A stretch of DNA of 64,000 nt. Source: Taiwanofungus camphoratus (Eukaryota > Basidiomycota > Agaricomycetes > Polyporales > Taiwanofungaceae). Shown piece after piece: positions 9,774 through 58,159 of the stretch (positions are counted from its first letter, which is position 1; each line of letters begins with the position of its first letter). The DNA is taken from NCBI GenBank assembly GCA_003999685.1, contig CP021224.1:1612001-1676000 (forward strand), in the 5' to 3' direction. A program made the position numbers and the translations under genes. The notes under the pieces are model-generated. The model ran no database searches. It had not been told where the DNA came from and saw nothing but the letters and a program-made list of their open reading frames with translations.

Positions 9774-10448
9774 CTGGCAACCGCAGCCACTGAAATCGTC
9801 ACCCCCCCTCACTGCCTGGACTGTTTTGCCAACAACCACAACACTGACCACTGCCCCGTCGTGAGAGCTGCCTGGTCAGAGATCAATGACCCCACCAAGG
9901 ATGCCACCACCACATAAAGGTAGATGTTGGGATGACATCTAGGGGAGATGGGGGTAATGTTACTGACTGGTAGGGATGATGGACATATTTACTCTTTTTT
10001 CCTCTTGTCTTACACTACAGATGTGCAGCTCCACTTTTGATTACTCACACACCATCTGTCTGATGGCCCAACCATCTCTGCTTACAATATCTGTAGTTAC
10101 TCATGTGGACCGCTGACCCCTCTCTCCTTATGCTGTCCCCTGGGGGTGACACAGTGGTACCTGGGGTCTGGCAGCAGTAGTATATATAGGGCCTCTGCTA
10201 AGGGATGATCCTTAGCTTTATCCTCTTTGTTCATCACTACAAGTACTACACCTTAGTATGCAATATACCTTGCTTTACTTGTCCCTTTGTATTGCAAGAA
10301 GCCCACAACCCTTTGAGATCATATAGAGCTTGTGGTTGAAGACACATTCGGGACAAGTGACTCATCATCACTGGCATTCTGTCTCATCACCCAGCTGCAT
10401 ATAGCCTCCACTGTTAGCAGCATGTAAGCGGGTGCACCCCCAGTAACA
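9774..10448 (+). mobile_element. E4: 3' end of a D-type chromovirus with LTR-D
   Basis: The first ~145 bp encode the C-terminal part of the third ORF also seen in E5 and E7 (second zinc knuckle CLDCFANNHNTDHC, then AWSEINDPT). A polypurine tract ending GGGGGTAA comes next, then a 491-bp LTR-D at 9958-10448 (TGTTACTGAC...CAGTAACA) with a TATA box (TATATATA, 10191-10198). The rest of the element is missing to the left, where an LTR-C abuts it. Confidence 0.75.
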
Positions 10449-15100: not shown

Positions 15101-17190
15101 AGCACAATGACCAGGTCACCCTGGTGGCGAGAGGGACAATGATGACATCATCCTCTTATCAGAAACACTGTTTGCAAAAGCTGTTAATGTCGACCTCATC
15201 GAGCGTATCCAAGAGCATTGTAGCTGTGATCAGAAGGTCATTGAGACAATTCACACCTTAAAATGGGGGAAGGTACCACCATTCAAGGGCACTGGGTTTG
15301 CACACACAACACTGGCCAATTGGGATGTACAGGATGGATTAATTTTGTACAAAAACCAAATCTACATACCCCCTAACGATGATCTATGCAGAGAAGTCAT
15401 CAGCCTATGCCACGACACCCCAGCCATGGCCCATCCTGGAGTGCAGGGAACATTTGCCATCGCCAGAAGAGACTGGTTCTGGGATGGCATGCTCACATTC
15501 ACTGAAAACTATGTGAAGGGCTGCATGAAGTGCCAGGAAAGCAAGGTTAACACACACCCAACATGGCCACCAATGCAACCAATACCCACCAAACTGAACT
15601 CCAGACCATTCTTGCACATCTCAGCTGACTTCATCATGGATTTGCCTGAATCAAAGGGCTTCGATGCACTAATGGTGGTTGTCAACTGCAAATTGTCAAA
15701 GAGGATAGTCCTGATCCCATGCAACAAGACTATTGATGCAGTCAAAATGGCTGAAGCGCTTCACCAGAACATCTATCAGTGATATGGGCTATCTGACAGG
15801 ATCATATCAGACAAAGGCCCACAATTTGCAGTGATGGTATTCTGAGAATAATGCAAGTTGACAGGTGTTAAAGTGGCCATGTCCACCACCTATCACCCTC
15901 AGTCAGATGGAAGCACTGAGCACGTCAACCAGGAACTCAAAGCAGTGTGGAGGATTCTGTGTGCAAATAACCCACATGACTGAGCAAAGTTCATCCCAGA
16001 ATTCAAATTCGCGCACAACCAGGTGCCACATGCTGGATGAAAGGAGTCACCTTTCAAGCTGATCATGAGATACAACCCAAAGGCCATTGGCTCACTGAAG
16101 GCCTCAGAAAGGTATCCATCTGTCAAAGACCAACTCTCAGCCATCAGTGAGTCCAGAAGGGAAGCCCTGGCAGCACAAGATCTGGCTGCTCAGCTCATGG
16201 TGGAAAGAATGTGGACAGCATGGAAACCATTTGAGAAGGGTACACAGGTTTGGCTAGAAGCTACTAACCTCCACCTGAAGATCCTGAAGAAGTTTGCCCC
16301 AAAGCGCATAGGACCACTCAAAATAGCCAAAGTCCTTAGACCACTGATGTACAAGCTACAGCTACCAAAGGCATGAAAGATACACCCAATATTCCATGCA
16401 TTGCTGTTGACACCATACCGGGAGACCAAGGAACATGGCCTGAACTTTATGAGGCCACCCCAGAGTTGGTCAATGAGGATGAGGAATACAAAGTTGAAGC
16501 CATTCGTGGGCATCGTGCCCAACATGGGAAATGGCAGTTCTTGATCAAATGGGTCAGATGGCCTAACTCTACTAACACATGGCAGTCTGAGGTGGACTTA
16601 GTGAACTTGCCCAACATCCTGGAGCAATATAAGAAGGCCAATAAGTTACCTGCGAAACCCCAGACCAGTGCCCGGTACACTCACATCTGCAGACACACAT
16701 ACACCTGCAGCTCACCTGGAGAACAACACTACAAGGTCCACTTATACAAACCCCTGACAGCAGTCCATGCACTTGAGCCACAGCATGGCAAACATACGAG
16801 CCCTCACACCCAGGGTACAGGCAAGGCAGACATGGGCCCATCCATACAACAAAGTTCAGGAGACGGTGCCCCCATATGCTGCATTAGACGATCCATACAA
16901 TCACTGGAGACTGGCACAACAGATCACATGGGCCCTGGTGGATGCAGACCTCTGGCCAGAGGTCAACATGAGGATGATAACATGGCCAGATCTGCACATG
17001 CTAGTCAACATCTATCAGACACTGGTAGGCATGACACATGATGCAGGTGGTCTGGCAGCCATGGAGCAGTGACGAACAGGTCTTGACATGAACAGGGACA
17101 ACCCAATGACATGGGAGCTGACCATGCTCCACATCGATGTGGGCAGAGCAGCATGGGACCTGCTTGCATACATCATGTGATCGTCCCTAG

Positions 17191-17666
17191 TGATACAATT
17201 TCTATTTCTTGTCATTACCATGGTCATTGCTTACATATGGACTATTACTGTACGGGCCCCGGATCGGCCCCACTTACGCATAGGACTCTGACTCATATCC
17301 GGGCCGCTTACCACATTCCTCATCACTCATACGTATTGCTAATACGCCTGGATCATACTACTTTCTATTTATCTATAGTCGTACCACATTACGGACCTCC
17401 TGCCCTAGAGTAGTTCTTGGTCCGTGCTCACGATACGTACTTGTATATATAGCATGTACTTAGCTTAGTTCAGACCTTAAGTCTGATCTTGTTACCACTA
17501 TATTCGTGTCTTGTATCCTCTCACTCACATCTGAGTGATACTCGCTCGAGTCTACGGACTTCACGACACTCGGTCTATATCGACCCTAAGACCTCGCCAC
17601 CTTCTATCGTGGTCAGGCCCTCACGTGTGAGGCAACATATAGGATCCGAGATACCAATTTGTATCA
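17191..17666 (+). repeat. LTR-B, 5' LTR of B
   Basis: The LTR ends are the perfect 6-bp inverted pair TGATAC/GTATCA. A TATA box (TATATATAG) lies at about 17444, giving a plausible promoter. No TGG-type tRNA primer site follows immediately (the inner flank reads AAAGATCAGACTTACG), so the primer is unclear. Confidence 0.9.
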
Positions 17667-18107
17667 AAAGATCAGACTTACGCCAAGCCGCCCCTAGTAC
17701 CATCTAGCGGGCATACATCCATTACCACGTCTTACCTCAGGACCGTCGATCCTGACTATTGGGGGTTACCTTCACGGGGAGAGGAACCACTTCTCTACGA
17801 CATCGAACAACGAGTGTTCGTAGACGCGAACCGGAACCCGATCTATCCGAGTTCACCGCTTACCTGGGTTAGAACAACATCCAGACGACCAATCCAACAA
17901 GCACAGGCCAACCTCGCTACTTACTTCCAGCGAAACCCTGTCGACGAAGGAAAAGACATCGCCATCTTATTCACGGGAGGATCGCAGGAAGCCACACCTA
18001 TCGAACCCATCCCTGAAGGCTCGTTCACCACCTCCACTTCACGAACCCCTACTCCCACTCCATCCTCTTCCACATCTACTCCTATAATATCCACACCCAC
18101 ACCTTGA
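17667..18107 (+). other. Leader region of B with an open frame lacking ATG
   Basis: A frame stays open from just inside the 5' LTR through to about 18104 and has coding-like composition (for example RTVDPDYWGLPSRGEEPLLY, and then a Thr/Pro/Ser-rich tail). It has no obvious ATG near its start. It could be a leader peptide, part of a gag precursor, or a frame kept by chance. I do not recognise a domain in it. Confidence 0.4.
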
Positions 18108-18116
18108 CGAGTCACA

Positions 18117-19145
18117 ATGGCCACAATTGGGAACATGACACAGCAGCAGCTAGAGGCACTCATCGCTTGCCTCAGCACCCAACAGCAAGGGGCTCGAGCC
18201 CTAAAGCTCGACATTCCTGCACCGGATCCATTCACCGGGCAAGGAGAAGATCTGGATCAATTCATCCAGCGGGTGGAACACTACTTCACCGCCACAAACA
18301 ACACCAACCTCAGCGATGACGCAAAAATCGCATTCGCGGTCGCCCTCATGAAGGGAGGGCAGGATGCCCGTATATGGCGCGACACATTCTACGAACGAGC
18401 AGCGGGGGGTCAAGCACCTTACAGGACATGGGACCTGTTCAAGGGATCCTTCAAGTTGGCATTTCCTGAACACGAGGGAGTGCAGCGAGCACATCAGGTG
18501 CTCATGGAATTACCAGCCAAACAGCTGAACAAGAAAACGAGGGCCACTACCAAAATGTATGTGGAGAGATTCCGACTTCTGGCCGAAAAGGCGAAGTTGA
18601 AGGACGCGACCATCGATGCGAACGGGAACCGCACCGAGAACGATTACCCTACCCTTAGGGCGATATTCATCAAGGGGCTAGACCGCCAGATCTACGCCAC
18701 ATTAGCCGGAAGGGCCACATCCGAAAGGCCGGACACCATGAAAAAATGGTATCGAGACGTCCTATCATTGGACGTGATCTACAGGGGGATCGACCAGATC
18801 TCCAACGTCACCACCTCGGTCGATTATGGGGAACCCATGGACGTAGACGCGGTCGTCACACGCTCCACACGCACCGCTTCAGCCGCCCCTAACAGGAAGC
18901 AATGGACGGATGGTTGTTCCTTGAACGAAAGCGAAAGGAAGTACCACTGCGACAACAACCTATGCTTCTATTGCCATAATAGGGGACATTCGGCACGAGA
19001 CTGTCGCAAGAAGGCGGCAGCAAGAACGAAGAACACGCCCAAGGCGCAAGACACGCGCCCTACGGATTACCGCTCTTACATCAAGAGCCTATCGGCTGAT
19101 GAAAAGAGGGAGGTCATGGAAGAATTGGCCACAGAGGATTTTTAA
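18117..19145 (+). CDS. gag: B gag polyprotein
   Basis: This 342-residue protein has the retrotransposon gag layout. An N-terminal segment with many glutamines is followed by a capsid-like core at about residues 35-200 (DPFTGQGEDLDQFIQRVEHY near the start; FKGSFKLAFPEHE; a helical stretch with MYVERFRLLAEKAKL), and then one CCHC zinc knuckle near residues 285-298 (CFYCHNRGHSARDC) with a basic tail. It should package element RNA in a particle. Its start is the first ATG of the frame (MATIGNMTQQQ), and pol follows downstream in a different frame. Of the gags seen here, only this one and E5's retain a recognisable capsid region. Confidence 0.88.
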   Translation: MATIGNMTQQQLEALIACLSTQQQGARALKLDIPAPDPFTGQGEDLDQFIQRVEHYFTATNNTNLSDDAKIAFAVALMKGGQDARIWRDTFYERAAGGQAPYRTWDLFKGSFKLAFPEHEGVQRAHQVLMELPAKQLNKKTRATTKMYVERFRLLAEKAKLKDATIDANGNRTENDYPTLRAIFIKGLDRQIYATLAGRATSERPDTMKKWYRDVLSLDVIYRGIDQISNVTTSVDYGEPMDVDAVVTRSTRTASAAPNRKQWTDGCSLNESERKYHCDNNLCFYCHNRGHSARDCRKKAAARTKNTPKAQDTRPTDYRSYIKSLSADEKREVMEELATEDF

Positions 19146-19149
19146 AGGG

Positions 19150-22100
19150 GCAGGGTGAGTCGACGCAACCGCTGCCCATTTCAGTTTCACTGTCCCGTGT
19201 TGTACTAGTAGTTCGGAATGAAAGGGCCTTACACATTCCGATTACGGTGGGACGAAAAGACGTCGAAGTGTGCGCCTTCATCGATAGTGGCGCCTCCAGG
19301 ATATTCATACATCCCAGATTTGTCAAAGAACACAACATCCGCACGGAGGCTTTACCTCGCCCAATGCCCATGTTCAATGTGGATGGAACAGCTAACAAGC
19401 AAGCCACCATCACAAAAAGAGCTCTTCTTTCGTACAAAATAGGAGGAGAACCCCGATTCGTTAAAGCCTATGTAGCCAGCATAGGGAACGAGGATATTAT
19501 CTTCGGACATACCTGGCTCAAGCTGGAAAATCCAGACATCGACTGGAAGACAGGACGGGTGGAGCTCAAACATCGCATGACTCTGGAAGAATCTAGGGAA
19601 TGGAAGAAAAACCTACTAGAGACCAGGGCCAAACGAATGGAAATCAAGAGGTTAACAGCAGAATCTCTTTCTAGAGAAATCATCAAAGCTCGCCAACCTT
19701 CGGTCGAAGAAATTGAGGACGAAGGAGATGGAGACGTCATGGATACCATGTCTCCAATCCTACCAACCACAAAGACCTCTCGTCAAACGACATCTCGAGA
19801 CTCTCCAGTCTCAACCCCGAAAGAAAACTCGGTAAACGGCATCACACTTGAACAAGCAATGGAAACAATCAACGACGATGAACTGGTCATAGCATTCATC
19901 GAAGGGGACGACCGAATCACAACGTACAAGCGGGATTCACATCCCGCGTATCGAGACGTCCCGCTTACGGAGAAGAAATACCCTCTCGATGGAGCGTATC
20001 GTCGCCTCGAAAATGGTCTCATCTGGCAGGTCAAGCATGACATTGGTCGACTCACTACCTCTACGGAACTCGCTATTAAGGAACACGCCAAGAAAGGGGA
20101 GAAACCGGTCACGGAACTCGTCCCTAAGTACCTACACGATCTCCTACCCGTATTCGACAAACAAGCGGCAGCCCGACTCCCTAAGCATACGGAACACGAC
20201 CACGAAATCAACTTGAAGGAAGATTTCAAGGAATTCAAGCAGTCCACTTATTCGCTCAACAGAGAAGAACGAGAGGAGCTGGACAAGTTCCTGGAAGAGA
20301 ACCTCCAAAAGGGGTACATCCGTCCGTCAAAATCACCATTGGCCAGTCCATTCTTCTTTGTAGAAAAGAAAGATGGGGGGTATCGACCTTGCCAGGATTA
20401 TCGGGAACTCAACGAGGGAACTATCAAGGATCGCTATCCACTTCCCCTTATATCGGAACTCCTGGAATGGCTGAACAAGGTGACCATCTTCACCAAGATG
20501 GATCTCAGGCAAGGGTACAACAATATACGGATCCGAGAAGGAGACAAATGGAAGGTGGCTTTCGGTGTCCCAGCAGCTGGGGAAGGACCTCCCTCGTTCT
20601 ATGAACCCCTGGTAATGTTCTTCGGGATGTGCAACTCACCAGCGACGTTCCAACGGATGATGAACACGGTCTTCGCAGACATGCTCAAAGAAGGATGGTT
20701 AGCAATCTACATGGACGACATCCTTATCTACTCGACGGACCCCGACGAGCATAAGAAACGAACACGACGAGTTATCGAGAGACTGCGGGATAACGACCTA
20801 TACCTCAAACCGGAGAAATGTAAATTCGATGTGCAAGAAGTCGAATTCCTAGGCATGATCATCAGACCTGGACAACTCGCGATGGACCCAGTCAAGGTAG
20901 CCGGTATCAAGGATTGGCCGATACCTAAGAACCTCAAGGAGGTTAGGTCCTTCATCGGATTCGGGAACTTCTATCGTCGCTTTATACACGGCTTCTCACA
21001 TCTGGCTCAACCTCTGGTCTCGCTTACACGAAAAGATGTCAAATGGCATTGGGACAACGAACAGCAGGAAGCTTTTGAAGCATTAAAGAAAGCTTTCCTA
21101 GAACAACCGGTTCTACAGATGCCCGACCCGGACAAACCATTCGCGTTGGAAACGGATGCATCGAAATTCACCACGGGGGCAGTCCTCAGGCAAAAAGACG
21201 ACAACGGCGATTGGCACCCATGCAGTTACATTTCCCAAAGCATGACACCAGCGGAGCGAAACTACGACGTCTACGACCGAGAACTCATGGCCGTCATGAG
21301 AGGACTCAATGAATGGAGTCACCTTCTCATCGGAAGTCCACACCCAGTCACGATTTACAGCGACCACAAAAATCTGACATACTGGAAGACAGCACGAAAT
21401 CTAAATCGAAGACAAGCACGATGGGCTCTTCGCCTATCCGAATTCGATTACAGATTAATTCATGTCCCGGGCACTCAAATGGTGCAAAATGACGTGCTGT
21501 CCCGACGCCCCAACCACGACGACAGTTCGGCAGACAATCTGGGAGTAACTGTCCTACCAGACAAGGTATGGGCAGCGGCAATCGACACGAGCCTAAGGAC
21601 TTCCATCACGAAAGCGGGCGTAAACGACCCGGTATATAAGGAAGGGCTGCATAATGCACAAAACGGCTTAGACGATCACTGGACGGTTCAAGATGGACAC
21701 CTCCTTTATGATAACCGGGTGTACATTCCCCTGGATGAGAACCTACGACAACAAACGGTCTCAAATTATCACGACCTCCCGCACGCCGGTCATCCCAGAA
21801 TTGTCAAAACCCTGGGCTCACTGCGAAGGGACTATTGGTGGCCTGGAATGGCCGACTTCATCGCCCGTTATGTTCATGGCTGTGGCACCTGCCAACAAAT
21901 GAAGGTTAACACTCACCCGGATCGTCCCGCCCTTGTCCCTATCCGAGCCGCCGCCCACGCCACACTGTTCAGCACTTTCTGTTGCGATTTCATCACGGAT
22001 CTACCCCTTTCAAACGGCTACAATGCCATATTGGTCGTAGTGGACCACGACCTTAGTAAGGGGGTAATTTTCATCCCATGCAACAAAACTATTGACGCGC

Positions 22101-23065
22101 AAGGAACGGCGAAGCTCCTTTACAACGAAGTCTACAAATGGTTTGGACTCCCAGACAAGGTGATCAGTGATCGCAGACCACAATTCGCATCAAAGGTATT
22201 CCAAGAGCTATGCCGCATGACTGGGGTGCAGTCCGCCATGAGCACGGCTTTCCATCCTCAGACAGACGGAGAAACAGAACGGGTCAATCAAGAACTCGAA
22301 GTGTACCTTCGATGCTTCACAAGTAACAACCCGGATAGGTGGTCTTCTCTACTCAGCGCAGCACAATTCGCTCACAACTCCAGAGAACATTCGACAATCA
22401 AGGCATCACCGTTTAAAGTCATGATGGGCTTCAAACCGTGAGGGATTCCCGTTGTACACAAAGGATCGGACACACCCGGCGCAGCTTATCGCCTGAAGAA
22501 CCTCCAAAAGATAAGAGAGCAAGCACACACGGCGATGGAGCTAGCCCAGGCAGTATTGGCAAAGCGGATCAAACCACGAGGGAAAGGTTTTCGTAAAGGA
22601 CAGCAGGTTTGGCTCGACTCTCGGAATCTAAAACTGCCATACCCCTCCAGGAAGTTGGCACCCAAGAGAGAGGGCCCCTTCGAAATCGTTGAAGTCCTAG
22701 GCCCGGTTTCATACAAGCTGAAACTCCCGGAGACATGGCGGGTACATCCCGTTTTCCACGCCGCCCTTTTATCGCCATTTACGGAAACGGAGATCCATGG
22801 CCAGAACTACACGAGGCCACCCCCGGAACTTATCGAAGGCGAAGACAACTACAAAGTCGAAGCTATCATCGGACATCGGGAGAACTTACGGAAAAAACAC
22901 CGCGAGTATAGGGTCAGGTGGAAAGGATATTCTTCGGCGGATGACTCATGGGAACCGGAAGCGAATTTAGCCGGTACTGCGGAGGAACTCCTGGGAGCAT
23001 ATAAGGAGAAGAAGAACTTGAGCAGAGACCAGTTCACTCCCTTCAGACGAACTACCACCCGCTAG
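19150..23065 (+). mobile_element. pol: B pol region: protease, RT, RNase H, integrase, chromodomain
   Basis: The order of parts is typical of chromoviruses. An aspartic protease lies about 19270-19560 (FIDSGAS). RT is about 20270-20870, with box YMDDILIYS at about 20708-20734. RNase H is about 21110-21490 (TDASKFTTGA, YDRELMA, YSDHKNL). Integrase has its HHCC zinc part about 21768-21905 (CGTCQQMK) and a core to about 22430 ([21 protein letters not shown]). A GPY-like module (GPFEIVEVLGPVSYKL) lies about 22670-22790 and the chromodomain about 22843-23010 (YRVRWKGY...DDSWEPEANL). The chromodomain is expected to steer integration towards modified histones. This whole region has about one break. 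Confidence 0.88.
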
Positions 23066-23069
23066 TAAC

Positions 23070-24455
23070 ATGCCTCGCCAGTCTAACACCACCGCCCAAG
23101 CTGCCGCTCGTGGCCGAGCCCGTGCCTTCCTTGCCACTCAACGTGCTACCCGCACACCTCAGACGGCCACCTCTCCTACGGTAGCACCATCCTCGTCATT
23201 GGCATCCTCTACGTCCACTGGTAACGGACCACTTTTTGGATTTCAAACCGCCGCGCACTTTCGCAACCCCGTGCCGGGAGAAGGCGCTTTACCTCGACAA
23301 GCCGACGTCCTCTACTACCCGCGCTTCATCTACGACGTGGACCCAGTCCTCCTCGACATCCTGGTTCGACACTCAAGGGACATCGCACGATTACTTGGGT
23401 CCCTACCCAATACGCAAAATAACCAGGACGAGCAGGAGGCTTTCGGAGAGTACATCGATGCCAGGTTGCAATATTTAGGAGCGGTAGACAACGCAATGGA
23501 ACAGCTGGCCATATGGAAGGACCAAATCCGGCAGTTAGACTTCAAGGTGGTCCGCACCTTACGACGGATGGATGATATGTCCATGGCCCGCCACCTTCAG
23601 GACATGATCGCCCTGCACCGACGAACCAATCACCATAGGTTCGTACGAAGATCTCAGCCCGACATTGTCACACGCGGACCCACCCCGCCACCTGAACCCG
23701 AGGACCCTTTGCAAACCTTCATCGACACCCCGGCCGGACAAGAATCCATTGGAGCCGTTCTCAGTAGGATCGACTCCCTCCCAAACTATATGCGCCCTGG
23801 ACCCAATTGGAGACCCCGAGGACACTGCCACGCCTGCGGCAGCATGATGCACTGGGTACGTGACTGCCCCGACTACACCTGTGCCAGGTGTCATCGCACG
23901 GCCCCGGGGCATCTATCCCGAGAATGCACAGTAGCCCGCCACGCTTCCGCCCCACCCATCCTGCCCGCCCCTGAAGAGGATCATCGTCGTGAGCTAGTTG
24001 ACTCAATCCACCGCCCCACGCAGGCACCCATCCCGGTCATGTCGGCCACCAATCCTCCTCACGTCCTTATGTCTCGAAGGGAGCAACCCCTTCCCCCTAC
24101 CCCATCTCGCCCCAGGGCAAATACGACAGCCGGTCCATCGCGGACCGATACGCCTCACCCTCACCCACGCGCACCTGGCCCACCACGCAACCATTTATCC
24201 GGTCCGGGTGTACCACCCGACCAACACCTCGCAGAACCCGGGGCAAGTATTGGCCCTTTCACTCGTGGCCCAGACGGCCGATTCACTCCTCCCCCAGTCA
24301 TCCCACCTCCCTCATCCAGTTATCACGTCCCCCCTGTCGTTTCTCCACCACCTGCTTACCGCCGTGGGACTTACGATCCGCCCTCGAACTCCTACATGAA
24401 TGACGACGAGTGGGACGACTACGGGTTCGAGGATTACGGTGATGGTGAACAGTAG
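23070..24455 (+). CDS. B third ORF: paired zinc-knuckle, proline-rich protein
   Basis: The ATG lies four bases after the end of pol and the frame runs 461 codons to shortly before the 3' LTR. The N-terminus (residues 1-50) is Ala/Thr/Ser-rich and basic. Residues about 80-190 look alpha-helical (DPVLLDILVRHSRDIARLL). Then come two zinc knuckles: C253-C256-H261-C266 (CX2CX4HX4C) and C271-C274-H281-C286 (CX2CX6HX4C). A long Pro-rich tail follows, with an acidic Tyr/Asp end (DDYGFEDYGDGEQ). Gag and pol are already present, so this is an extra gene, probably a nucleic-acid-binding accessory protein; that function is inference. Close coupling to pol suggests reinitiation or a spliced message. I do not recognise the family. 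Confidence 0.8.
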   Translation: MPRQSNTTAQAAARGRARAFLATQRATRTPQTATSPTVAPSSSLASSTSTGNGPLFGFQTAAHFRNPVPGEGALPRQADVLYYPRFIYDVDPVLLDILVRHSRDIARLLGSLPNTQNNQDEQEAFGEYIDARLQYLGAVDNAMEQLAIWKDQIRQLDFKVVRTLRRMDDMSMARHLQDMIALHRRTNHHRFVRRSQPDIVTRGPTPPPEPEDPLQTFIDTPAGQESIGAVLSRIDSLPNYMRPGPNWRPRGHCHACGSMMHWVRDCPDYTCARCHRTAPGHLSRECTVARHASAPPILPAPEEDHRRELVDSIHRPTQAPIPVMSATNPPHVLMSRREQPLPPTPSRPRANTTAGPSRTDTPHPHPRAPGPPRNHLSGPGVPPDQHLAEPGASIGPFTRGPDGRFTPPPVIPPPSSSYHVPPVVSPPPAYRRGTYDPPSNSYMNDDEWDDYGFEDYGDGEQ

Positions 24456-24732
24456 GGGTGCTGTTTGCTTGAGGCGGTAGGTTGCAAGCGGTGCTGGGTC
24501 CTTACCCGGCCGCCCACATGCCTACATTGCATTGCACGAGGCTTACACGATGTCGTGGGTCCTTACCCGGTCGCTGTCTGTCTCACACGGAACGAGATGA
24601 AACACTCTCATTGGGATTCGAGGTGAAACATCCTCACGGTACGCGGTGAAACACCCGCACGGCTGAAGAACATTTTTATTTAACGGAAAATCAAGTAGGG
24701 TCGTTCGGAGATCGACCTTAGTAAGGGGGTAA

Positions 24733-25208
24733 TGATACAATTTCTATTTCTTGTCATTACCATGGTCATTGCTTACATATGGACTATTACTGTACGGGCC
24801 CCGGATCGGCCCCGCTTACGCATAGGACTCTGACTCATATCCGGGCCGCTTACCACATTCCTCATCACTCATACGTATTGCTAATACGCCTGGATCATAC
24901 TACTTTCTATTTATCTATAGTCGTACCACATTACGGACCTCCTGCCCTAGAGTAGTTCTTGGTCCGTGCTCACGATACGTACTTGTATATATAGCATGTA
25001 CTTAGCTTAGTTCAGACCTTAAGTCTGATCTTGTTACCACTATATTCGTGTCTTGTATCCTCTCACTCACATCTGAGTGATACTCGCTCGAGTCTACGGA
25101 CTTCACGACACTTGGTCTATATCGACCCTAAGACCTCGCCACCTTCTATCGTGGTCAGGCCCTCACGTGTGAGGCAACATATAGGATCCGAGATACCAAT
25201 TTGTATCA
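24733..25208 (+). repeat. LTR-B, 3' LTR of B
   Basis: This is the second 476-bp LTR of B, about 99.6% identical to the first by eye. About 280 bp of non-coding sequence separate it from the third ORF, containing short repeats such as GTCCTTACCCGG (twice) and GAAACA(C/T)-type repeats near 24590-24660. Confidence 0.9.
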
Positions 25209-25532
25209 CCTAGTAAGGATCATTGATGACTTGATACCCCCACAACACCAGGCCTGGGTGCAGGCACCCACTATTAGCTATGCCCTCAGCTCAGGATCAG
25301 GGGGGCCCTCAACCCACAACTCCTCCAACCCCTCAGCAACCAACTCCTCCTTCTGCATAAGGTGCCTTCAAGTGGGGCATCGGGTTGAAGAATGCATGCA
25401 TGACAGCAACAATGATCTGTCCTCTGACCATTCTGACACCATCCAACCTCGAACAATGCTGGAGGAAGATGCTGTGAACTCTAACATTGAGGATTAGATT
25501 GTTGGGGCAATGAATCTTTGAGAGGGGGGTAA
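25209..25532 (+). other. E2 third ORF, distal part with zinc knuckle
   Basis: To the right of the B insertion, and after its CCTAG duplication, the coding segment of E2's third ORF resumes. It carries one clear CCHC knuckle (CIRCLQVGHRVEEC) and an acidic C-terminus (EEDAVNSNIED), then the polypurine tract and the 3' LTR. The proximal part left of the insertion has the conserved pattern WALVDADL...WPDL...NIYQ, which corresponds to WVLANEQL...WPNL...AIFQ in E7. Confidence 0.65.
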
Positions 25533-30703: not shown

Positions 30704-32333
30704 ATGGATGAAGAGGTCGCAGCGATCGTGCGTACCATTCAACTCGCCCTCGGTACTTACATGCGACAACTCATGTATCAGGTCATTGACAACGGTTCTG
30801 GCATGTGCAAGGCTGGCTGTAGGTCCTTCTTTTTCCAGTGCGGCGATCCAGTGTGACGTTGAGTCCTTTTAGTTGCAGGTATGTTCGTGCTAGAGGGTGC
30901 ATGACGGTTTTGTCTGATGATTATCGAAGGTGATGATGCACCTAGAGCTGTGTTTCCGTGAGTGTCGTGATCGCAAATAGTCAAATGAAGCTAACGCTCT
31001 CATATTCCAGCTCTATCGTCGGTCGACCGCGCCACCAGGGCGTGATGGTCGGAATGAACCAGAAAGACTCTTACGTCGGGTACGCTTCCCATTCGCCGCC
31101 TTCAATTTTCACTCACACACTTCTGCCAGCGACGAAGCACAAGCAAAGCGAGGCATTCTGACGCTCAAGTATCCGATCGAGCACGGCATTGTGACCAACT
31201 GGGACGACATGGAACAGATCTGGCACCACACATTCTACAACGAGCTGCGTACCGCATCAGAGGAACACCCCGTGCTGCTGACCGAGGCACCGCTCAACCC
31301 GCGCGCGAACCGCGAGAAGATGGCACAGATCATGTTCGAGGCGTTCGCTGCGCCCGCATTCCACGTGTCCGTGCAGGCCGTGCTCGCGCTTTACGCGTCC
31401 GGGCGGACGACAGGCATCGTGCTCGACGCGGGCGACGGCGTCACACACACCGTACCGATCTACGAGGGCTTCTCGTTGACGCATGCCATTCGCCGCGTCG
31501 ACCTCGCCGGGCGCGATCTCACACACCGCCTCGTGAAGCACCTGGCGCTGCGCGGATACCAGCTCAATACCAGCGCCGAGCGCGAAGTCGTGCGCGACGT
31601 GAAGGAGCGCCTGTGCTACGTTGCACTGGACTATGAGCAGGAGATGCGCACCGCCACGCAGTCGTCCGCGCTCGAGAAGAGCTACGAGTTGCCAGACGGC
31701 CAGGTTATAACCATCGGGAGCGAGCGGTAGGACTCCTTACCATGCTGGGTCTTCTCGATGCTTACCTTGAGTACTGTGGTCAGATTCCAGGCCCCGGAGG
31801 CGCTCTTCCAGCCCGCCCTCCTAGGCTTGGAGGCCAGTGGCATTCACGAGACCGTGTAAGCATTATCTCACATTGCTTAGGGCAGCCTTGGTTGAGCAGA
31901 AACATCACCAGATATACCTCGATCACAAAGTGCGACTTGGATGTCCGTCGCGACTTGTACGGCAACATGGTCCTATCTGGCGGCAGCACCATGTTCCCAG
32001 GCATCGCCGATCGCTTGCAGAAGGAGATAACGGCGCTCGCGCCACCTAGCATGAAGGTACGCTACATTCGCCATCGTGCTCCTGCCTGCAATGTTGGAAG
32101 ATAATTCTGACGCACCATCGTACAGGTCAAGATTGTTGCCCCGCCGGAGAGGAAGTACTCGGTCTGGATTGGCGGCTCGATCTTGGCGTCGTTGAGCACG
32201 TTCCAGAACATGTGGTGCTCGAAACAAGAATACGACGAGTCGGGACCTGCTATTATTCATCGCAGTGCGTGCCTTCGTTCGTCGCTCGCATGCTTTTCCA
32301 CATTGACGCCCCTCCGCCCCAGAGTGCTTCTAG
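30704..32333 (+). CDS. Actin, divergent paralog, ten exons
   Basis: Exons 30704-30727, 30782-30818, 30873-30878, 30930-30957, 31011-31079, 31130-31726, 31784-31855, 31912-32056, 32126-32264 and 32323-32333 keep frame and give exactly 375 residues, the canonical actin length, from MDEEVAAI to HRKCF. Conserved marks include [70 protein letters not shown] and [14 protein letters not shown], covering both nucleotide-binding loops. Several normally invariant sites differ ([44 protein letters not shown]), so this is probably a second, specialised actin and not the main gene. Exon 3 is only 6 nt (TTGCAG), completing the Phe-Ala-Gly of KAGFAGDD. It looks intact. Confidence 0.93.
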
Positions 32334-34296: not shown

Positions 34297-36934
34297 ATGG
34301 GTGAGCCGCAATCTTCCCCGACTACTCCTCCTACTAAGAATATTCCACTACCTGATACTCCTGCCGTGCGTAAGTGTACACAAGACCCATCATATCTGGA
34401 TGGAGACCTGGAAGAGGGTCGAGTAGCAGTGATACAGGAACTTGGAGAATCCATCTTCGAGGTTTCTGTCCAGTTCTTTCTCGACAACATCTTCCCCCCA
34501 CTTCGTCCGGAATTCGACCTTGATAGAGTCATTCAGACGCTCAAAGACCAAAACAACATTTCACAGAGCGGACGATGGAGATCTTTTCCAGTCAACCCCG
34601 CTGCGTCATGGTCTAATGAGAATGTTACCTTCAAGCCTCTCGAGGACATGGTCAGGCAGATTGCAATGGCGGGCGGATTGGGCGGTAATGGCAGACTGCT
34701 TGACTTCGAGAACAATCCAAATCACACCCCAAAGTCGGAACTCAGAGACTCTACATCTCGCCCCGACGGATATCTTATACTGCATGACAAACAAGATGGT
34801 GTCCACTGGACAGACATCGCCCTTTGTGCTGAATACAAGAAGAGAAAATCTATTGATGACAGGAATGATGTGAGTACGAAGGCTGATGAATGTAAGAGGC
34901 TCATAACTGATATTGGTACAGAATGTTCGGAAGATTGTGTGGGGCATGCACCATTGCATGCGCAATGATCCACGTCGAAGATTTACGATAGGCCTTACAA
35001 TTGAGGATATGGATACGAGACTTTGGTTCTGTAGCCGTTCGGAGACATTAGTGACCGACCTTTTCAACTTTACGACGGTGCGTTGCCATACAATTTTTGT
35101 ACAAAGTGTCATCTTACGCTGCACACAGGACCATAAGACCGTTGTTCATATATTCTTGTCGTTGATGTATGCTGCATCACATGAAGTCGGTTGGGATCCT
35201 ACAATTTGTCCCGTCACGGATAGCGAAGGCAAGGTACTATTGGACAGCGATGGTAAACGCCGGTTCGACATTTCTGTGCGATCGGCAGACGGAACCAATG
35301 TTGTATATCGCACAATCAAGATTCTAGCCGACTTTGGCGCGAATGCGCCTCAGGGCAGGGGTACTCGGGTTTGGGAAGCCAAGAAATTGGAGAATGGAGA
35401 GGAATGTGGAGAACCCGTTGCACTCAAAGATTCTTGGATCGACAGTGATCGTACAAGAGAAGGTGCTCTTTATGGAGAGCTTCGCGCCTCGGATACTTCC
35501 ACAGATTTTCAAGATGCCATGAAGACATTCATTATGACGGTTATATGCGAGGGAGATGTCTACATCAATGGAGAAATTGATGACACTCGGACGCTCATGA
35601 CGCGGGGTCAAGGAATTCCAAAGAACAGTTCCCACTTTACAGTCCAACTCACATGGCCTCCCGCAGCCAAATTAAGCCAGTCGTCGAGAGTGACCACGGG
35701 GTATCATCACAGTCCGGAAGAGTACATGTGGAAGCTACCGGATCCTCCCAGAGTCTATCATCCGAAAGCACACTATCGGATTGTTTTCAAGGAGGTGTGC
35801 AAGCCCATATACACAGTCCCCTCGTTGGCCACGGTTTTCCAGCTAATCGCTCAAGTTATTCGTGGTAAGTGCCTTGTCCATTTGCGAATGGATCTTGTTA
35901 TTAATCCACTCTTTTGTACTGGTGTGACTAGGGTTGAGATTCCTGCATCGAAATAAGTGGGTCCATCGTGATATAAGCGTGGGAAACATCCTTGTAGACA
36001 AGGCGTCGAATGTGAGGTTAGGTGATTTGGAGTACTTGAAGAGGATGGATCAAGATGGCGCACATGATATACGGACGGTGCGCACTTAGTACCATTTGAT
36101 TTGACTGTATCCTTATCTCTGCATCATCAGGGCACTGCTGATTTCATCGCAATAGAAATTGATGGACGAACGTATAAATTCATGTCGGAACAAGATGACA
36201 CCGATGATACAGATGATAGTTCGACACCACCTCCGGAACCTATAGAGTCTTCCGAAGCGATCGATGCAGTCGCTGAGTCGTCACTCCCTGATCCCAATGT
36301 AGCAGACTGGGAACCGGAAACGCAGGTGAAACAGAAGCCTGGTGTGAGATACAATCCTCTGCATGACCTTGAATCCTGCTGGTGGGTTGCAGTATATTTC
36401 CTCTTCAATTACCGTGTCGTCCGCGTCGGCAATAGTGCACCATCAAGTGATTATGACCGTAAGCTAGAAGGGCAAATGCGTTACGCAAAGAGGCTCTTTT
36501 ACGGAGACTTGGCATCGAGAATTAGTACCTTGACTGACGTTGGCGTTTTCATCGATGCTGTGGGCAACCTTCATTCATCTGTTAAAGGCACAGGCGTCAT
36601 GCTCGAAGATGCGAGGAAGCGGCTCATAAAACGTTACCGCGAGGGCGAGAAAGATTTGGCTACACTCAACCACACAGTTGCGGACGGTATTCATGCAAAG
36701 ATCGAAAAGCAGTTTATCGAGAAATCGAAAATCCTGTCCGCAAAAAATGTCGAAATCGGTCCATTCAGAGGGGTCGAGAGAAAGGCGACGAGCAAGCGGC
36801 GACGAGAGGACGCGGACGGAGGAGATGGCAAAGAAGACGTTCAGGCGGAGGATGTTGAACCCACCGGAAGTGCTGTCGCACCATTAAAACATTCATCCTC
36901 GTCGAAGAAACCCAGGCTATCTTCGGATCCTTAA
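34297..36934 (+). CDS. FunK1 fungal-type protein kinase
   Basis: Five exons (34297-34869, 34922-35077, 35129-35864, 35932-36077, 36131-36934) with 50-67 nt introns give 804 residues in one frame. The kinase loop is at residues about 500-510: H500-R501-D502 in WVHRDISVGNILV, with N507. The metal-binding Asp is D520 in LGDLEY, where ordinary kinases have DFG; a DLE-type motif is, as I recall, usual for FunK1. The activation segment ends in GTADFIAIE (538-546). The N-terminal ~450 residues carry the FunK1-specific region, and the C-terminus is acidic with a basic KRRRED cluster that may be a nuclear signal. FunK1 kinases are greatly expanded in Agaricomycetes and linked to multicellular development; the substrate is unknown. 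The gene looks intact. Confidence 0.9.
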
Positions 36935-45600: not shown

Positions 45601-46725
45601 GAGTTAGAAGCAGCCTGGAGAATTCTGTGCACAAATGATCCCCACACATGGGTCTGACACATTTCAGAGTTTGAATTCACACACAACCAGGTGCCGCATG
45701 CTGGAAGAAAGGACTCCCCATTCAAGCTGATCATGGGATATGACCCAAAGGCCATCGGCTCTCCTTGGCCCTCAGAGAAGTACCCCATGCTTCAGGACTG
45801 CCTGACCCAGATCTCCGAATCCTGCAAGGAGGCCCTTGTGGCACAAGAACTGGCATGGAAGCTGATGGAGGACAGGACCCCCTTCCCCTGGAAACCATTC
45901 CAGAAGAACAACAAGGTTTGGCTAGAAGCCATGAACCTTTGCCTGAAGACAATAAGTCGGAAGTTTGATCCCAAGCAACTTGGGCTGTTTAGGATCGTCA
46001 AAGTCAAGGGACCCCTGACTTACAAGCTACAGCTCCCGAGGACCTGGAAAATCCACCCGGTGTTCCACACATCTTTACTCACCCCATACAGGGAAATGGC
46101 GGAACATGGACCAAACTGTGCTAAGCCCCCACCTGACCTGGTCGAAGGGGAAGAAGAATATGAAGTTGAAGGTATTCACAGGCATCGTGCCCACCATGGA
46201 GGGTGGGAGTTTCTCATCAAATGGAAAGGATGGCCAGCTTCCACCAACACATGGCAAATGGAGGAGGATCTGCGTCACGCCCCCGAACTGTTAAAACAGT
46301 ATAAAAGGGCAAACCACCTCAGTGTCAACCCAGAATCCAGCCACTCAATTGCAACATGCACAGCATTCACCTCCACCCCAGACGTCGACCTCAGCCATGT
46401 CCCACCAGAACAACCTTGCCAGGGCCTGCCTCACCACTTCCATCCTCACTGCCACCAATGCCCACACCCTCAACCCCTTCCTCCAGGGGCAACAGAACCT
46501 CCCCAACTGGGATGATGGGATTGTGGTTGCCCTCCCCTGCCAAGCGACGTTGGGTCTCACCACCAACTTCCTGACCCCAGCCAACCGTCTAGGGTGGGTA
46601 TTGGCCAATGAGCAGCTCCGCCCAGTGGTCAACACTGCCCTCATCATCTGGCCTGACCTTGCATGTCAGGTCACCATTTTCTGGCACGAGGCTGAGGTCA
46701 TCCTCCACCTCGACCAGGTCATCCG

Positions 46726-47353
46726 TGTTACGGGGGTGTTTACGCCCATAAGTGACTACTAGTGACAGTGAGTCGTTGAGTAGTCGAGCGTGTATGCGAG
46801 GAGTCAGCCTAGCTGATGACGAGTATACACCTAAGTCTTCAACCACTAGCCCAATGGTCTCGAGAGAGTTGCAGGCTATGTTGTGTCATCTAAGTCCAAG
46901 TGTAGTCACAAGGAAATAGATGGTCTGAGAAGACCCGTTGAATAGACGAAGGTATATACAAAGTACAAGGACAACAACAGTGTCCAAGTACATAGTGAAC
47001 TAAGGCTACCAAAGTGTAACCTGAGGTAAGAAACGAGGTAACAGGACGGTTACCAGGGTGTAACAGAAGGTGATAAACAAGAGGACAAGATTGGGGTACT
47101 CTGCAGTGAGTCAACCCCCTTAAGTACTATGATGGCTTAGGGCAGGTCGGCCCTTGCTCCACAGGTATCAGTACCTACTAAGTGTCCCTGAGTCAGAGGC
47201 TCGAACAGCCCCCTCTGAGTAACGGTCCATAACTAAGCGGGGACGGACAGCCCATCTGGAATGGTGGTGGTAATCGTAAGTGTACACAACCTGCTAGTCC
47301 GAAAAGTGAAGAGAAAATGAAATGTACACCCACACCTGTATCGCCTTGTAACA
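46726..47353 (-). repeat. LTR-A, 3' LTR of E6
   Basis: A 628-bp LTR, somewhat longer than its partner because of an extra GGTAAC/GTTACC-rich segment near 47015-47075. The same extra segment is present in the LTR at 63495. Confidence 0.85.
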
Positions 47354-52601: not shown

Positions 52602-53161
52602 ATCCATGGGTACAGGGGGGAGACAGAGACAGGGGGACATGATGCGATGAAGTGGTGGGCCAGCCTGATCTGAGAGGTGGGGGTAGCATACTGGCAGGCC
52701 TGTAACAGCACCTGGTCTCTCCTCAACTTCCTACTTCACACAGATATTGTCAGTGCACTCCAGCATCTCCTTCCCCTGTCCTTCATCATCACACGCCCCG
52801 CCCCCACCATTCAAGATGAATGGACTGTTTGTCTCCACCCTGAATGCCGTCAAACTTCGACATCTACCTGGGACTACTCTTGTTGGTTCTGTGGGGGTAA
52901 GGACCACGCTTCGGCAGCATGTTACCAACACCCAGTCCTGGGGACTGCAGCCACCAAAGCCAATGCTTGCTCACAACGGGAAACATGGGCTGCTGATGCT
53001 GTTGTTCCCCCTCACTGCCTTGACTGCTTTGCTGACCATCACAACACTGACCACTGCCCCATCACGGGGGCTGCCTGGTCAGAAATCAATGACCCTGCCG
53101 AGGATGCCACCACTGTCTAATGGTAGATGTCAGGATGACATCTTGGAGAAGACGGGGGTAA

Positions 53162-56842: not shown

Positions 56843-57661
56843 CTATGCTTTGACATTGGTGTTTTCTCTGGAGGGTGGGGTGGTATCATTGATTTCTAAC
56901 CAGGGAGCCCACACAGTGGAACACTGATTGATGTTGTGGTCATCAGCAAAGCAGTCCAGACACCATGGTGAGATGATGACTTCAGTGGCCAGGGTCCCCA
57001 GAATAGGACACTGGTAGCATGCAGCAGAGGCATGGTTCTTGCTGCTGCAGAACTGGCAGGAGTACTCCCAGGTGAATGTTGAGGGCTGGTGACATTCTGG
57101 GTGGAGACAGACTGTCCACTCATCCTGAATTGTGAAGGCAGGGTGTGTGATGATGAATGATGGAGGAAGGAGGTGCTGGAGGGTGGTGATGACATCTGTG
57201 TGAAGGAGGAAATTGAGGAGAGACTGGGTGAAATTACAGGCTTGCCAGTATGCTATCCCAACCTCCTGGATTGGGCTGGCCCACCATTTGGCTGCATTGT
57301 GATCTTCTGTCTTTGTCTCTCTCTTGTACCTCCTTATCACCTGATCAAGGTGCATGATGACTTCAGCTTCATGCTGGAAAATGGCAATCAGGCATGCAAG
57401 GTTGGGCCAGATGACCAGGGCAGTGTTTATGGCCAGACAGAGTTGTTCATTGGCCAACACCCACCCCAGGCGATTGGCTGGGGTCATGAAGTTGGTGGTG
57501 AGACCTGATGTCACCTGTTGGGGGAGGGCAGCCACAATTCCCTCATTGAAGTTGGGGAGGTTTTGGGGTCCCCTAAGGAAGGGGTTCAAGGTGTGAGCAT
57601 TCGTTGCTGTGAGGACAAAGGTGGTGAGGTGGGCCCTGGCAAGGTTGTTCTGATGTGACAT
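56843..57661 (-). CDS. E7 third ORF: paired zinc-knuckle accessory protein
   Basis: An open frame of 272 codons lies between the E7 chromodomain region and its 3' LTR. Residues 1-110 include a segment conserved with E5 and, more weakly, E2 (RLGWVLANEQL, then VIWPNLACLIAIFQ). The middle is helical (SLLNFLLHTDVITTLQHLL). The C-terminal third has a CLHPEC pair (C185, C190), knuckle 1 at C202-C205-H210-C215 and knuckle 2 at C234-C237-H242-C247, both CX2CX4HX4C. It probably binds RNA or DNA; that is inference. It has stayed open although the E7 pol is badly broken. I do not recognise a named family. Its counterpart in B has the same position and knuckle pair but little overall similarity. Confidence 0.75.
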   Translation of the reverse strand: MSHQNNLARAHLTTFVLTATNAHTLNPFLRGPQNLPNFNEGIVAALPQQVTSGLTTNFMTPANRLGWVLANEQLCLAINTALVIWPNLACLIAIFQHEAEVIMHLDQVIRRYKRETKTEDHNAAKWWASPIQEVGIAYWQACNFTQSLLNFLLHTDVITTLQHLLPPSFIITHPAFTIQDEWTVCLHPECHQPSTFTWEYSCQFCSSKNHASAACYQCPILGTLATEVIISPWCLDCFADDHNINQCSTVWAPWLEINDTTPPSRENTNVKA

Positions 57662-57707
57662 GATGGGGACTGGTCTTCAGGTGTTGTGTGGTTATAGTAC
57701 ATGCAGG

Positions 57708-58159
57708 TGTTATGGGGGTGTTCAAGTAGTCAGCCTAGCTGGCGATGAGTATACACCTAAGTCTTCAACTGCTAACCCAACGGTCTCAAGAGAGTTGCAG
57801 GCTAAGTTGTGTCATCTATATCCTAGTGTAGTCACAAGGAGATAGATGGTCTGAGAAGACCCATTGAATAGACAAAGGTATGAGTACAGAGTACTAAGGT
57901 AACAATGGTACCCAAGTATACAGTGTAACAAAAGAGGACAAGATTGGGGTACTCCACAGTGAGTCAGCTCCTTAAGTACTACAGTGGGTTTAGGGCAAGC
58001 CAGCCCACACCCCACAGGTATCAGTACCTGTGTCTGCTAAGTGGGTGATGGTCAGCCTGTCTGGGATGATGATGGTAATTGTAAGTGTACACAACCCACT
58101 AGTCCAATGAGTAGAAAGAAATGAGAAATGTACACCTGCACTAGTATCACCTTGTAACA
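57708..58159 (-). repeat. Short LTR-A between E7 third ORF and chromodomain
   Basis: A 452-bp minus-strand LTR-A, shorter than other copies. On its own strand both flanks contain CCTGCATG, but offset, so a clean 5-bp duplication cannot be stated. It is solo, without internal sequence. Confidence 0.75.

What the first reader, a model, noticed from the sequence alone, without database searches (positions are those of the whole stretch)
23070..24455. A third gene after pol in fungal chromoviruses, with paired zinc knuckles
In B a 461-codon frame starts four bases after pol and ends before the 3' LTR. In the A/D elements a frame at the same place (E7 56843-57661 intact; parts in E5, E2 and E4) also carries CCHC knuckles, two of them wherever the distal half is fully visible. 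Overall sequence similarity between the B and A/D versions is slight, so either an old accessory gene has diverged greatly or two were gained independently. Standard Ty3/gypsy elements carry only gag and pol. I know of no named family matching it; function as a nucleic-acid-binding accessory protein is inference.
Basis: partly seen in the sequence, partly recalled or inferred. Interest (0 to 1): 0.78.

Follow-up and report, generated by a model that had tools for sequence, protein, structure and literature searches.

The report
Selected third gene in fungal retrotransposons
Jumping elements in this fungal genome carry, besides their usual two genes, a third gene for a small protein that probably grips RNA or DNA with zinc fingers, and natural selection has clearly kept that gene working.

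Summary
The 461-codon frame at 23070-24455 is real, coding, and part of a larger pattern. The own genome (33.2 Mb, unnamed, fungal) holds four chromovirus families (B, C, E, F) with a third ORF after pol; 130 of the 150 scored reverse-transcriptase matches have one 1.2-4.5 kb downstream on the same strand, against 2-12 in controls. Among 19 open B copies dN/dS is 0.11 (pol tail 0.09 in the 11 compared), lowest at the knuckles (0.02), above 1 in the other two frames. E subfamilies give 0.10-0.22; there the ORF overlaps an extension of pol in which no constraint was detected. B and C share a paired-knuckle module; E and F share another protein; beyond one generic knuckle I found no link between the two types. 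F has one knuckle, so 'paired' is not universal; the four-base spacing is a quirk of this copy. Best reading: a non-envelope, nucleic-acid-binding accessory gene, in two types. Selection is shown; binding is inferred; role and expression route are unknown. Additional ORFs in such elements are already in print (PMC2864245, PMC7264820), hence a new variant of a known kind.

The parts
17186..17190 (+). target-site duplication CCTAG, left (repeat at 25209-25213)
17191..17666 (+). 5' LTR of element B (476 nt; 2 differences from the 3' LTR, 99.6% identical)
18117..19145 (+). gag of B, 342 aa, one CX2CX4HX4C knuckle
19247..23065 (+). pol of B: protease, RT, RNase H, integrase, chromodomain; in-frame stop at 22439-22441; family stop before ORF3 lost, so it reads to 23065
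23070..24455 (+). ORF3 of B, 461 aa, the finding
23826..23867 (+). first zinc knuckle CX2CX4HX4C (residues 253-266)
23880..23927 (+). second knuckle-like motif CX2CX6HX4C (residues 271-286)
   Evidence: shared with family C
24720..24732 (+). mostly purine tract directly before the 3' LTR, putative PPT
   Evidence: sequence; label inferred
24733..25208 (+). 3' LTR of B
16605..17192 (+). older F-type ORF3, first part, with stops; element B is inserted in it
25210..25509 (+). the same F-type ORF3, second part, one knuckle
46397..46726 (+). E-type ORF3, residues 1-110, split by a nested minus-strand element
52602..53117 (+). the same E-type ORF3, distal part, with one stop
56843..57661 (-). E7 ORF3, 272 aa, open, two knuckles
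9774..9914 (+). tail of an E-type ORF3

Best explanation
ORF3 is a genuine third gene of these chromoviruses. It encodes a probably soluble accessory protein with one or two zinc knuckles which most likely binds the element's RNA or cDNA in trans, alongside Gag's own knuckle, as a nucleocapsid-like chaperone or packaging and protection factor. It comes in two types. Type 1 (B, C) is built on a paired-knuckle module; in C it is little more than that module (84 aa), in B it also carries a longer N-terminal part and a proline-rich tail. Type 2 (E, F) has a conserved N-terminal part of about 170 aa followed by one or two knuckles, and its start lies inside the open pol frame. Shown: presence in many copies, open frames, purifying selection, overlap with the pol frame. 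Inferred: zinc binding, nucleic-acid binding, role. Not known: how it is translated.
For: Pairing of RT with ORF3: 130 of 150, controls 2-12. B: dN/dS 0.11 over 171 pairs of 19 open copies (of 30 held); other frames 1.74 and 2.12; knuckle stretch 0.02. Biallelic sites that differ in one copy only: N:S 110:63; shared by two or more copies: 108:221; pol tail of 11 copies likewise 103:114 and 47:138; so constraint acted while the lineages transposed and relaxed after insertion. E: 0.10-0.22 over six pairs of four copies. F against an old F copy: 0.31 and 0.27 over its two parts. C keeps little but the knuckle module, yet 64 of 78 matches have no in-frame stop (my count). E and F are homologous (tblastn to 1.8e-10, hhalign 3.8e-9); B and C likewise (4.8e-13, hhalign 2.8e-13). 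The E/F profile's best PDB matches are retroviral nucleocapsid proteins, weak (best E 0.0074).
Against: Only B's first knuckle passes a Pfam cut-off; E and C give no zinc match and F is below cut-off; their motifs rest on pattern. B alone finds only weak PDB matches (best E 0.22, a CCHC protein, ZCCHC8) and its profile none at E 0.1. Both structure models are poor (mean pLDDT 38.1 and 46.0). Gag already has a knuckle in B and E, so a second nucleocapsid-like protein is not obviously needed. Synonymous change is near saturation in several E and F comparisons (dS 0.8-1.5), so those ratios are rough. No transcript or protein data. No other species could be tested.
Confidence: 0.66

Rival explanations
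1. ORF3 is a nuclear regulator: it binds element DNA or small RNA and counters host silencing or controls element transcription, rather than acting in the particle.
For: Knuckles can bind nucleic acid of either kind (recalled). Broken copies carry mainly TGA stops by eye, which would fit decay at methylated CpG (inference), so a silencing pressure is plausible.
Against: No regulatory domain in Pfam; no localisation data either way.
Confidence: 0.2
2. ORF3 is an envelope-like gene, as in other elements with an ORF after pol.
For: Position between pol and 3' LTR. One 19-residue stretch in E7 and E72 has mean hydropathy 1.94 and 1.76, above 1.6, the usual limit (recalled).
Against: The highest value is 1.24 in B, -0.23 in C, 1.47 in E60 and 1.37 in F (one copy each); zinc knuckles, proline-rich tail in B; C is only 84 aa. 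No signal-peptide or topology program was run.
Confidence: 0.04
3. ORF3 is a duplicated piece of gag (nucleocapsid).
For: Both have CCHC knuckles and lie in the same element.
Against: hhalign finds no gag match for B or E/F ORF3 (only B and C gag were compared); the second-knuckle spacing CX2CX6HX4C of B and C is not in B's gag.
Confidence: 0.06
4. A host gene was captured by the element, once or twice, and kept.
For: Capture of host genes by retroelements is known (PMC7264820, part read).
Against: The own-genome searches brought up no evident single-copy host relative, but I did not examine every unpaired match and no other eukaryote genome could be searched.
Confidence: 0.15
5. The frame is a chance opening without function.
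For: In E and F the pol frame also stays open across the overlap, so open frames alone prove little.
Against: dN/dS 0.10-0.22 in two types with no detectable relation, other frames about 1 or above.
Confidence: 0.01

Closest known systems
Additional ORFs (aORF) of plant LTR retrotransposons (PMC7264820, first of three parts of the text read)
   Same: Extra gene between pol and 3' LTR, kept in most copies, function unknown
   Different: Sense aORFs described there are env-like; others are antisense, including that of Boty in the fungus Botrytis cinerea. Here a sense zinc-knuckle protein
'add. ORF' of unknown function in a survey of Gypsy elements of fungi and one spikemoss (PMC2864245; section 5 and two passages read)
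   Same: The legend of its Figure 3 names an additional ORF in the elements drawn
   Different: What I read gives no sequence, motif or selection test; which element bears it I could not see (figure not held, supplements not open to me)
ORF3 of bdelloid rotifer LTR retrotransposons (PMC5408684, passages read)
   Same: Non-envelope ORF3 after pol, without transmembrane part in the enzyme-like kinds
   Different: Those are GDSL esterase/lipase-like and DEDDy nuclease-like proteins; Juno's extra Zn knuckle follows the dUTPase between protease and RT
Retroviral nucleocapsid proteins (PDB 1cl4, 1a6b, 1u6p)
   Same: CX2CX4HX4C knuckles; weak profile match to E/F ORF3 (E 0.0074-0.022)
   Different: Part of Gag (recalled), not a separate gene after pol

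Membership tests
Ty3/gypsy chromovirus (element B) | LTRs with short target-site duplication | tested here: met
   476-nt LTRs, CCTAG on both sides
Ty3/gypsy chromovirus (element B) | pol order protease, RT, RNase H, integrase | tested here: met
   RVP_2, RVT_1, RT_RNaseH, Integrase_H2C2, rve in order, each over its cut-off, rve and RVP_2 narrowly
Ty3/gypsy chromovirus (element B) | chromodomain at the integrase C-terminus | tested here: met
   PF00385 E 7.2e-16
zf-CCHC zinc-knuckle proteins | match to PF00098 over its cut-off | tested here: inconclusive
   B met (31.5 and 32.7 bits against 20.8); F below (17.7); E7, E60, E72, C none
zf-CCHC zinc-knuckle proteins | C, C, H, C residues in knuckle spacing | tested here: met
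   pattern in one copy of each of the four families; 18 of 19 open B copies and 26 of 26 open E copies with both
Envelope-like ORF3 | transmembrane segment or signal peptide | tested here: inconclusive
   hydropathy only; one stretch above 1.6 in E7 and E72, none in B, C, E60, F
Retroviral or retrotransposon nucleocapsid | encoded within Gag | tested here: not met
   separate frame after pol; gag has its own knuckle in B and E
Retroviral or retrotransposon nucleocapsid | binds the element's RNA | not testable with these tools
   needs a binding assay

The most novel reading that the evidence does not exclude
Two chromovirus lineages in one fungal genome independently gained a zinc-knuckle accessory gene at the same place after pol, one of them overprinted on the 3' end of the pol frame, and most of the best-scoring elements now carry one: a convergent, non-envelope third gene class of fungal chromoviruses.
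Probability: 0.4. Interest if true: 0.66.

Novelty: new variant of a known kind. Interest (0 to 1): 0.55.

Why it matters
Chromoviruses are usually described as gag-pol elements. A selected non-envelope third gene beside most of the scored RT matches of one genome implies a step in their life cycle that gag and pol do not cover. The 84-aa form of family C narrows the question to a pair of knuckles that can be made and assayed directly.

Tried and rejected
Chance frame: rejected by dN/dS and by reading the other frames. Dual coding in the E/F overlap: no constraint on the pol frame was detected; its ratio is 0.93-2.09 in the stretches compared in E and 1.55 in F, and the pol stop varies (+116, +362, +425 in E; +521 in F). 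Only some pairs truly share the overlap (L044-L042 over 120 codons, 1.85; L044-L041 and L041-L042 over 38 codons, 1.01 and 1.52), so weak constraint near the chromodomain is not excluded. Splice acceptor at TTCAG before the B start: its AG is missing in several copies with open ORF3, such as L012, L022, L032 and L033, so not supported; expression route left open. Stop-start ATGA in family C: the ATG overlaps the pol stop in 3 of 3 copies in hand, but leads in frame into ORF3 in only 1 of 3. Gag origin: no match. Whether C's short form is derived: not resolved; pol-tail identity of nine matches adjoining older B-like ORF3 copies is 70-79% to B and 66-78% to C, nearer to B in 8 of 9 by 1-4 points, a slight hint that the long form groups together. 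B-C selection at the knuckles: synonymous sites saturated, no ratio. Structure models: poor, not used; no fold search made. Viral contigs: no relative of one B or one E ORF3. Papers: the listings of searches showed me no named family for this ORF; subscription journals and Repbase were not searchable. An alignment of window fragments for folding was dropped because one row was in the wrong frame. The 20 of 150 RT matches without ORF3 were not followed one by one; one region beside one of them was fetched (L075): its pol ends abruptly within the chromodomain region and no ORF3 is clear.

Full report
What is there. The window lies at G000:C5:1612001-1676000 of an unnamed 33.2 Mb genome in 15 contigs. 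Element B runs from 17191 to 25208, with 476-nt LTRs that differ at 2 positions and CCTAG duplications on both sides. It has gag (18117-19145), pol with protease, RT, RNase H, integrase and chromodomain (19247-23065, with an in-frame stop at 22439-22441), and a third frame of 461 codons at 23070-24455. That frame has a zf-CCHC knuckle (PF00098, E 1.6e-7, over the cut-off) and, after four residues, a second motif CX2CX6HX4C. B itself is inserted in an older element's third frame, parts of which flank it at 16605-17192 and 25210-25509.

Not a quirk of one copy. Own-genome searches show four families; each count below includes the query copy and is mine from the table named. B: 42 near-full matches at 80% identity or more; of the 37 that match end to end (84% or more), 23 have no in-frame stop. 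E (with E7): 56 near-full, 33 without stop. F: 42 at 87% or more over a 205-residue part of the 251-aa protein, 33 without stop. C: 78 matches of 61-100% identity to an 84-aa frame, some partial, 64 without stop. Frameshifts are not seen in these counts. Of the 150 RT matches that the tool scored (of 419 candidates), 130 have an ORF3 match on the same strand 1.2-4.5 kb downstream: C 47, B 39, E 38, F 6; 20 have none. For this I gave 62 of the 93 rows, 73 of 81, 55 of 105 and 78 of 131; the rows left out were second pieces of the same copy or matches to the sister family. The same count is 6 on the opposite strand, 6 upstream, and 2-12 with positions shifted by 8-60 kb. Families with weaker RT matches are not covered.

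Coding and selected. The 30 B copies held are the best-scoring matches; 19 are open over 440 codons and 11 were dropped. The 171 pairs give mean dN 0.061, dS 0.568, ratio 0.11; 68% of changes are at third positions. In the 11 copies where the pol tail is also open, ORF3 gives 0.11 and pol 0.09. The other two frames of ORF3 give 1.74 and 2.12. By 50-column stretch the ratio is lowest at the knuckles (0.02) and at columns 100-150 (0.03), 0.17-0.19 in the first hundred, and highest at columns 350-450 of the tail (0.23-0.29), falling to 0.05 at the very end. Biallelic changes seen in one copy only have N:S 110:63, those shared by two or more 108:221, with 2.99 times more N than S sites; the pol tail of 11 copies shows the same contrast, 103:114 and 47:138. 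So selection acted while lineages transposed and relaxed after insertion. Choosing open copies biases towards constraint, but would not by itself produce the third-position excess or the contrast between stretches. In E, six pairs of four copies (E60, two E72, E7) give 0.15-0.20 in the first 120 codons and 0.11-0.22 in the rest (0.10-0.22 for the first 38 codons alone), while the pol frame gives 0.93-2.09 over the same overlap stretches. F against the old window copy gives 0.31 and 0.27. dS in E and F comparisons is mostly 0.4-1.5, near saturation at the top, so these ratios are rough.

Arrangement. In B the pol stop lies 45, 46 or 47 nt before the ORF3 start, hence in different frames relative to it, in 26 of 30 copies; in the window copy that stop is lost, so pol happens to end four bases before. 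A fixed frameshift is thus not the route in B. In E and F the pol frame stays open past the chromodomain and, in undecayed copies, 116-521 nt into ORF3, in the same relative frame. No constraint on that part of pol was detected, so ORF3 appears to overprint a dispensable extension. How ORF3 is translated is not known; a candidate splice acceptor was not conserved.

Two types. C matches B over the paired knuckles (49% over 53 residues, 4.8e-13; hhalign 2.8e-13). Their starts align (MPRQSN in B, MSQSN in C), and their pol C-terminal stretches are mostly 80-84% identical, less in decayed copies. F matches E over about 150-200 residues at 24-27% (1.8e-10; hhalign 3.8e-9). Between the types only 19 columns of one knuckle align (probability 17%, E 0.0015 for that single comparison), and with knuckles cut off nothing does. 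The profiles are shallow (effective number of sequences 1.2-1.9), so very old common descent is not excluded. E has two knuckles and F one, so pairing is not a fixed feature.

What it does. The best-supported reading is a nucleic-acid-binding accessory protein. The constant part is the knuckle, and family C consists of little else. Nothing in Pfam matches the rest; E/F weakly match retroviral nucleocapsid chains in the PDB (0.0074); B alone matches only weakly (best 0.22, ZCCHC8) and its profile nothing at 0.1. Single-sequence structure models were too poor to use (mean pLDDT 38.1 and 46.0). An envelope role is unlikely from hydropathy and size, though one stretch in E7 and E72 is above the usual limit. 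Whether it chaperones RNA, protects cDNA or counters silencing cannot be decided here.

Against what is known. Extra ORFs are known in plant elements, and in antisense in the fungal element Boty (PMC7264820, first of three parts read), and in rotifers (PMC5408684, passages). [quoted passage not shown] figure not held). PMC3248453, PMC3411680 and PMC10799480 were looked at by term search only; the passages shown describe no such ORF, the first mentioning additional domains in composite elements made by nested insertion. My eight answered paper searches listed no paper that I could see naming a zinc-knuckle ORF3 in fungal chromoviruses; that is weak evidence of absence, since most listed papers were not opened and subscription journals and Repbase were not searched. 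No other eukaryote genome was available, so age and spread are open.

Noticed in passing
16605-25509: Element B is inserted inside an older F-type ORF3; an E-type ORF3 (46397-46726 / 52602-53117) is likewise split by a nested element. Two cases may be chance.
   Followed up: partly
57652-58158: LTR-like sequence lies between E7's pol and its ORF3, directly before the ORF3 start.
   Followed up: partly
G000 C1:3689972, C1:3734601 (L069): Two family C copies have an open frame of about 1,780 codons over gag and pol (seen in L069); in L070 gag and pol are in different frames.
   Followed up: partly
L075; G000 C8:1005810, C8:840797, C11:1178412: Three B/C-like copies stop matching at the same point near the end of the chromodomain region; perhaps a 3'-truncated subfamily.
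   Followed up: partly
L009-L038: Open B copies in one genome differ by mean dS about 0.57 yet remain open, which suggests several lineages active in parallel.
   Followed up: no
tables: In-frame stops in broken copies are mainly TGA by eye, as expected if CGA decays to TGA at methylated CpG.
   Followed up: no
31191-31730 and 34913-35956: An actin-like frame (PF00022, E 1.5e-57) and a fungal protein kinase frame (PF17667, E 5.9e-27) lie between the elements.
   Followed up: no
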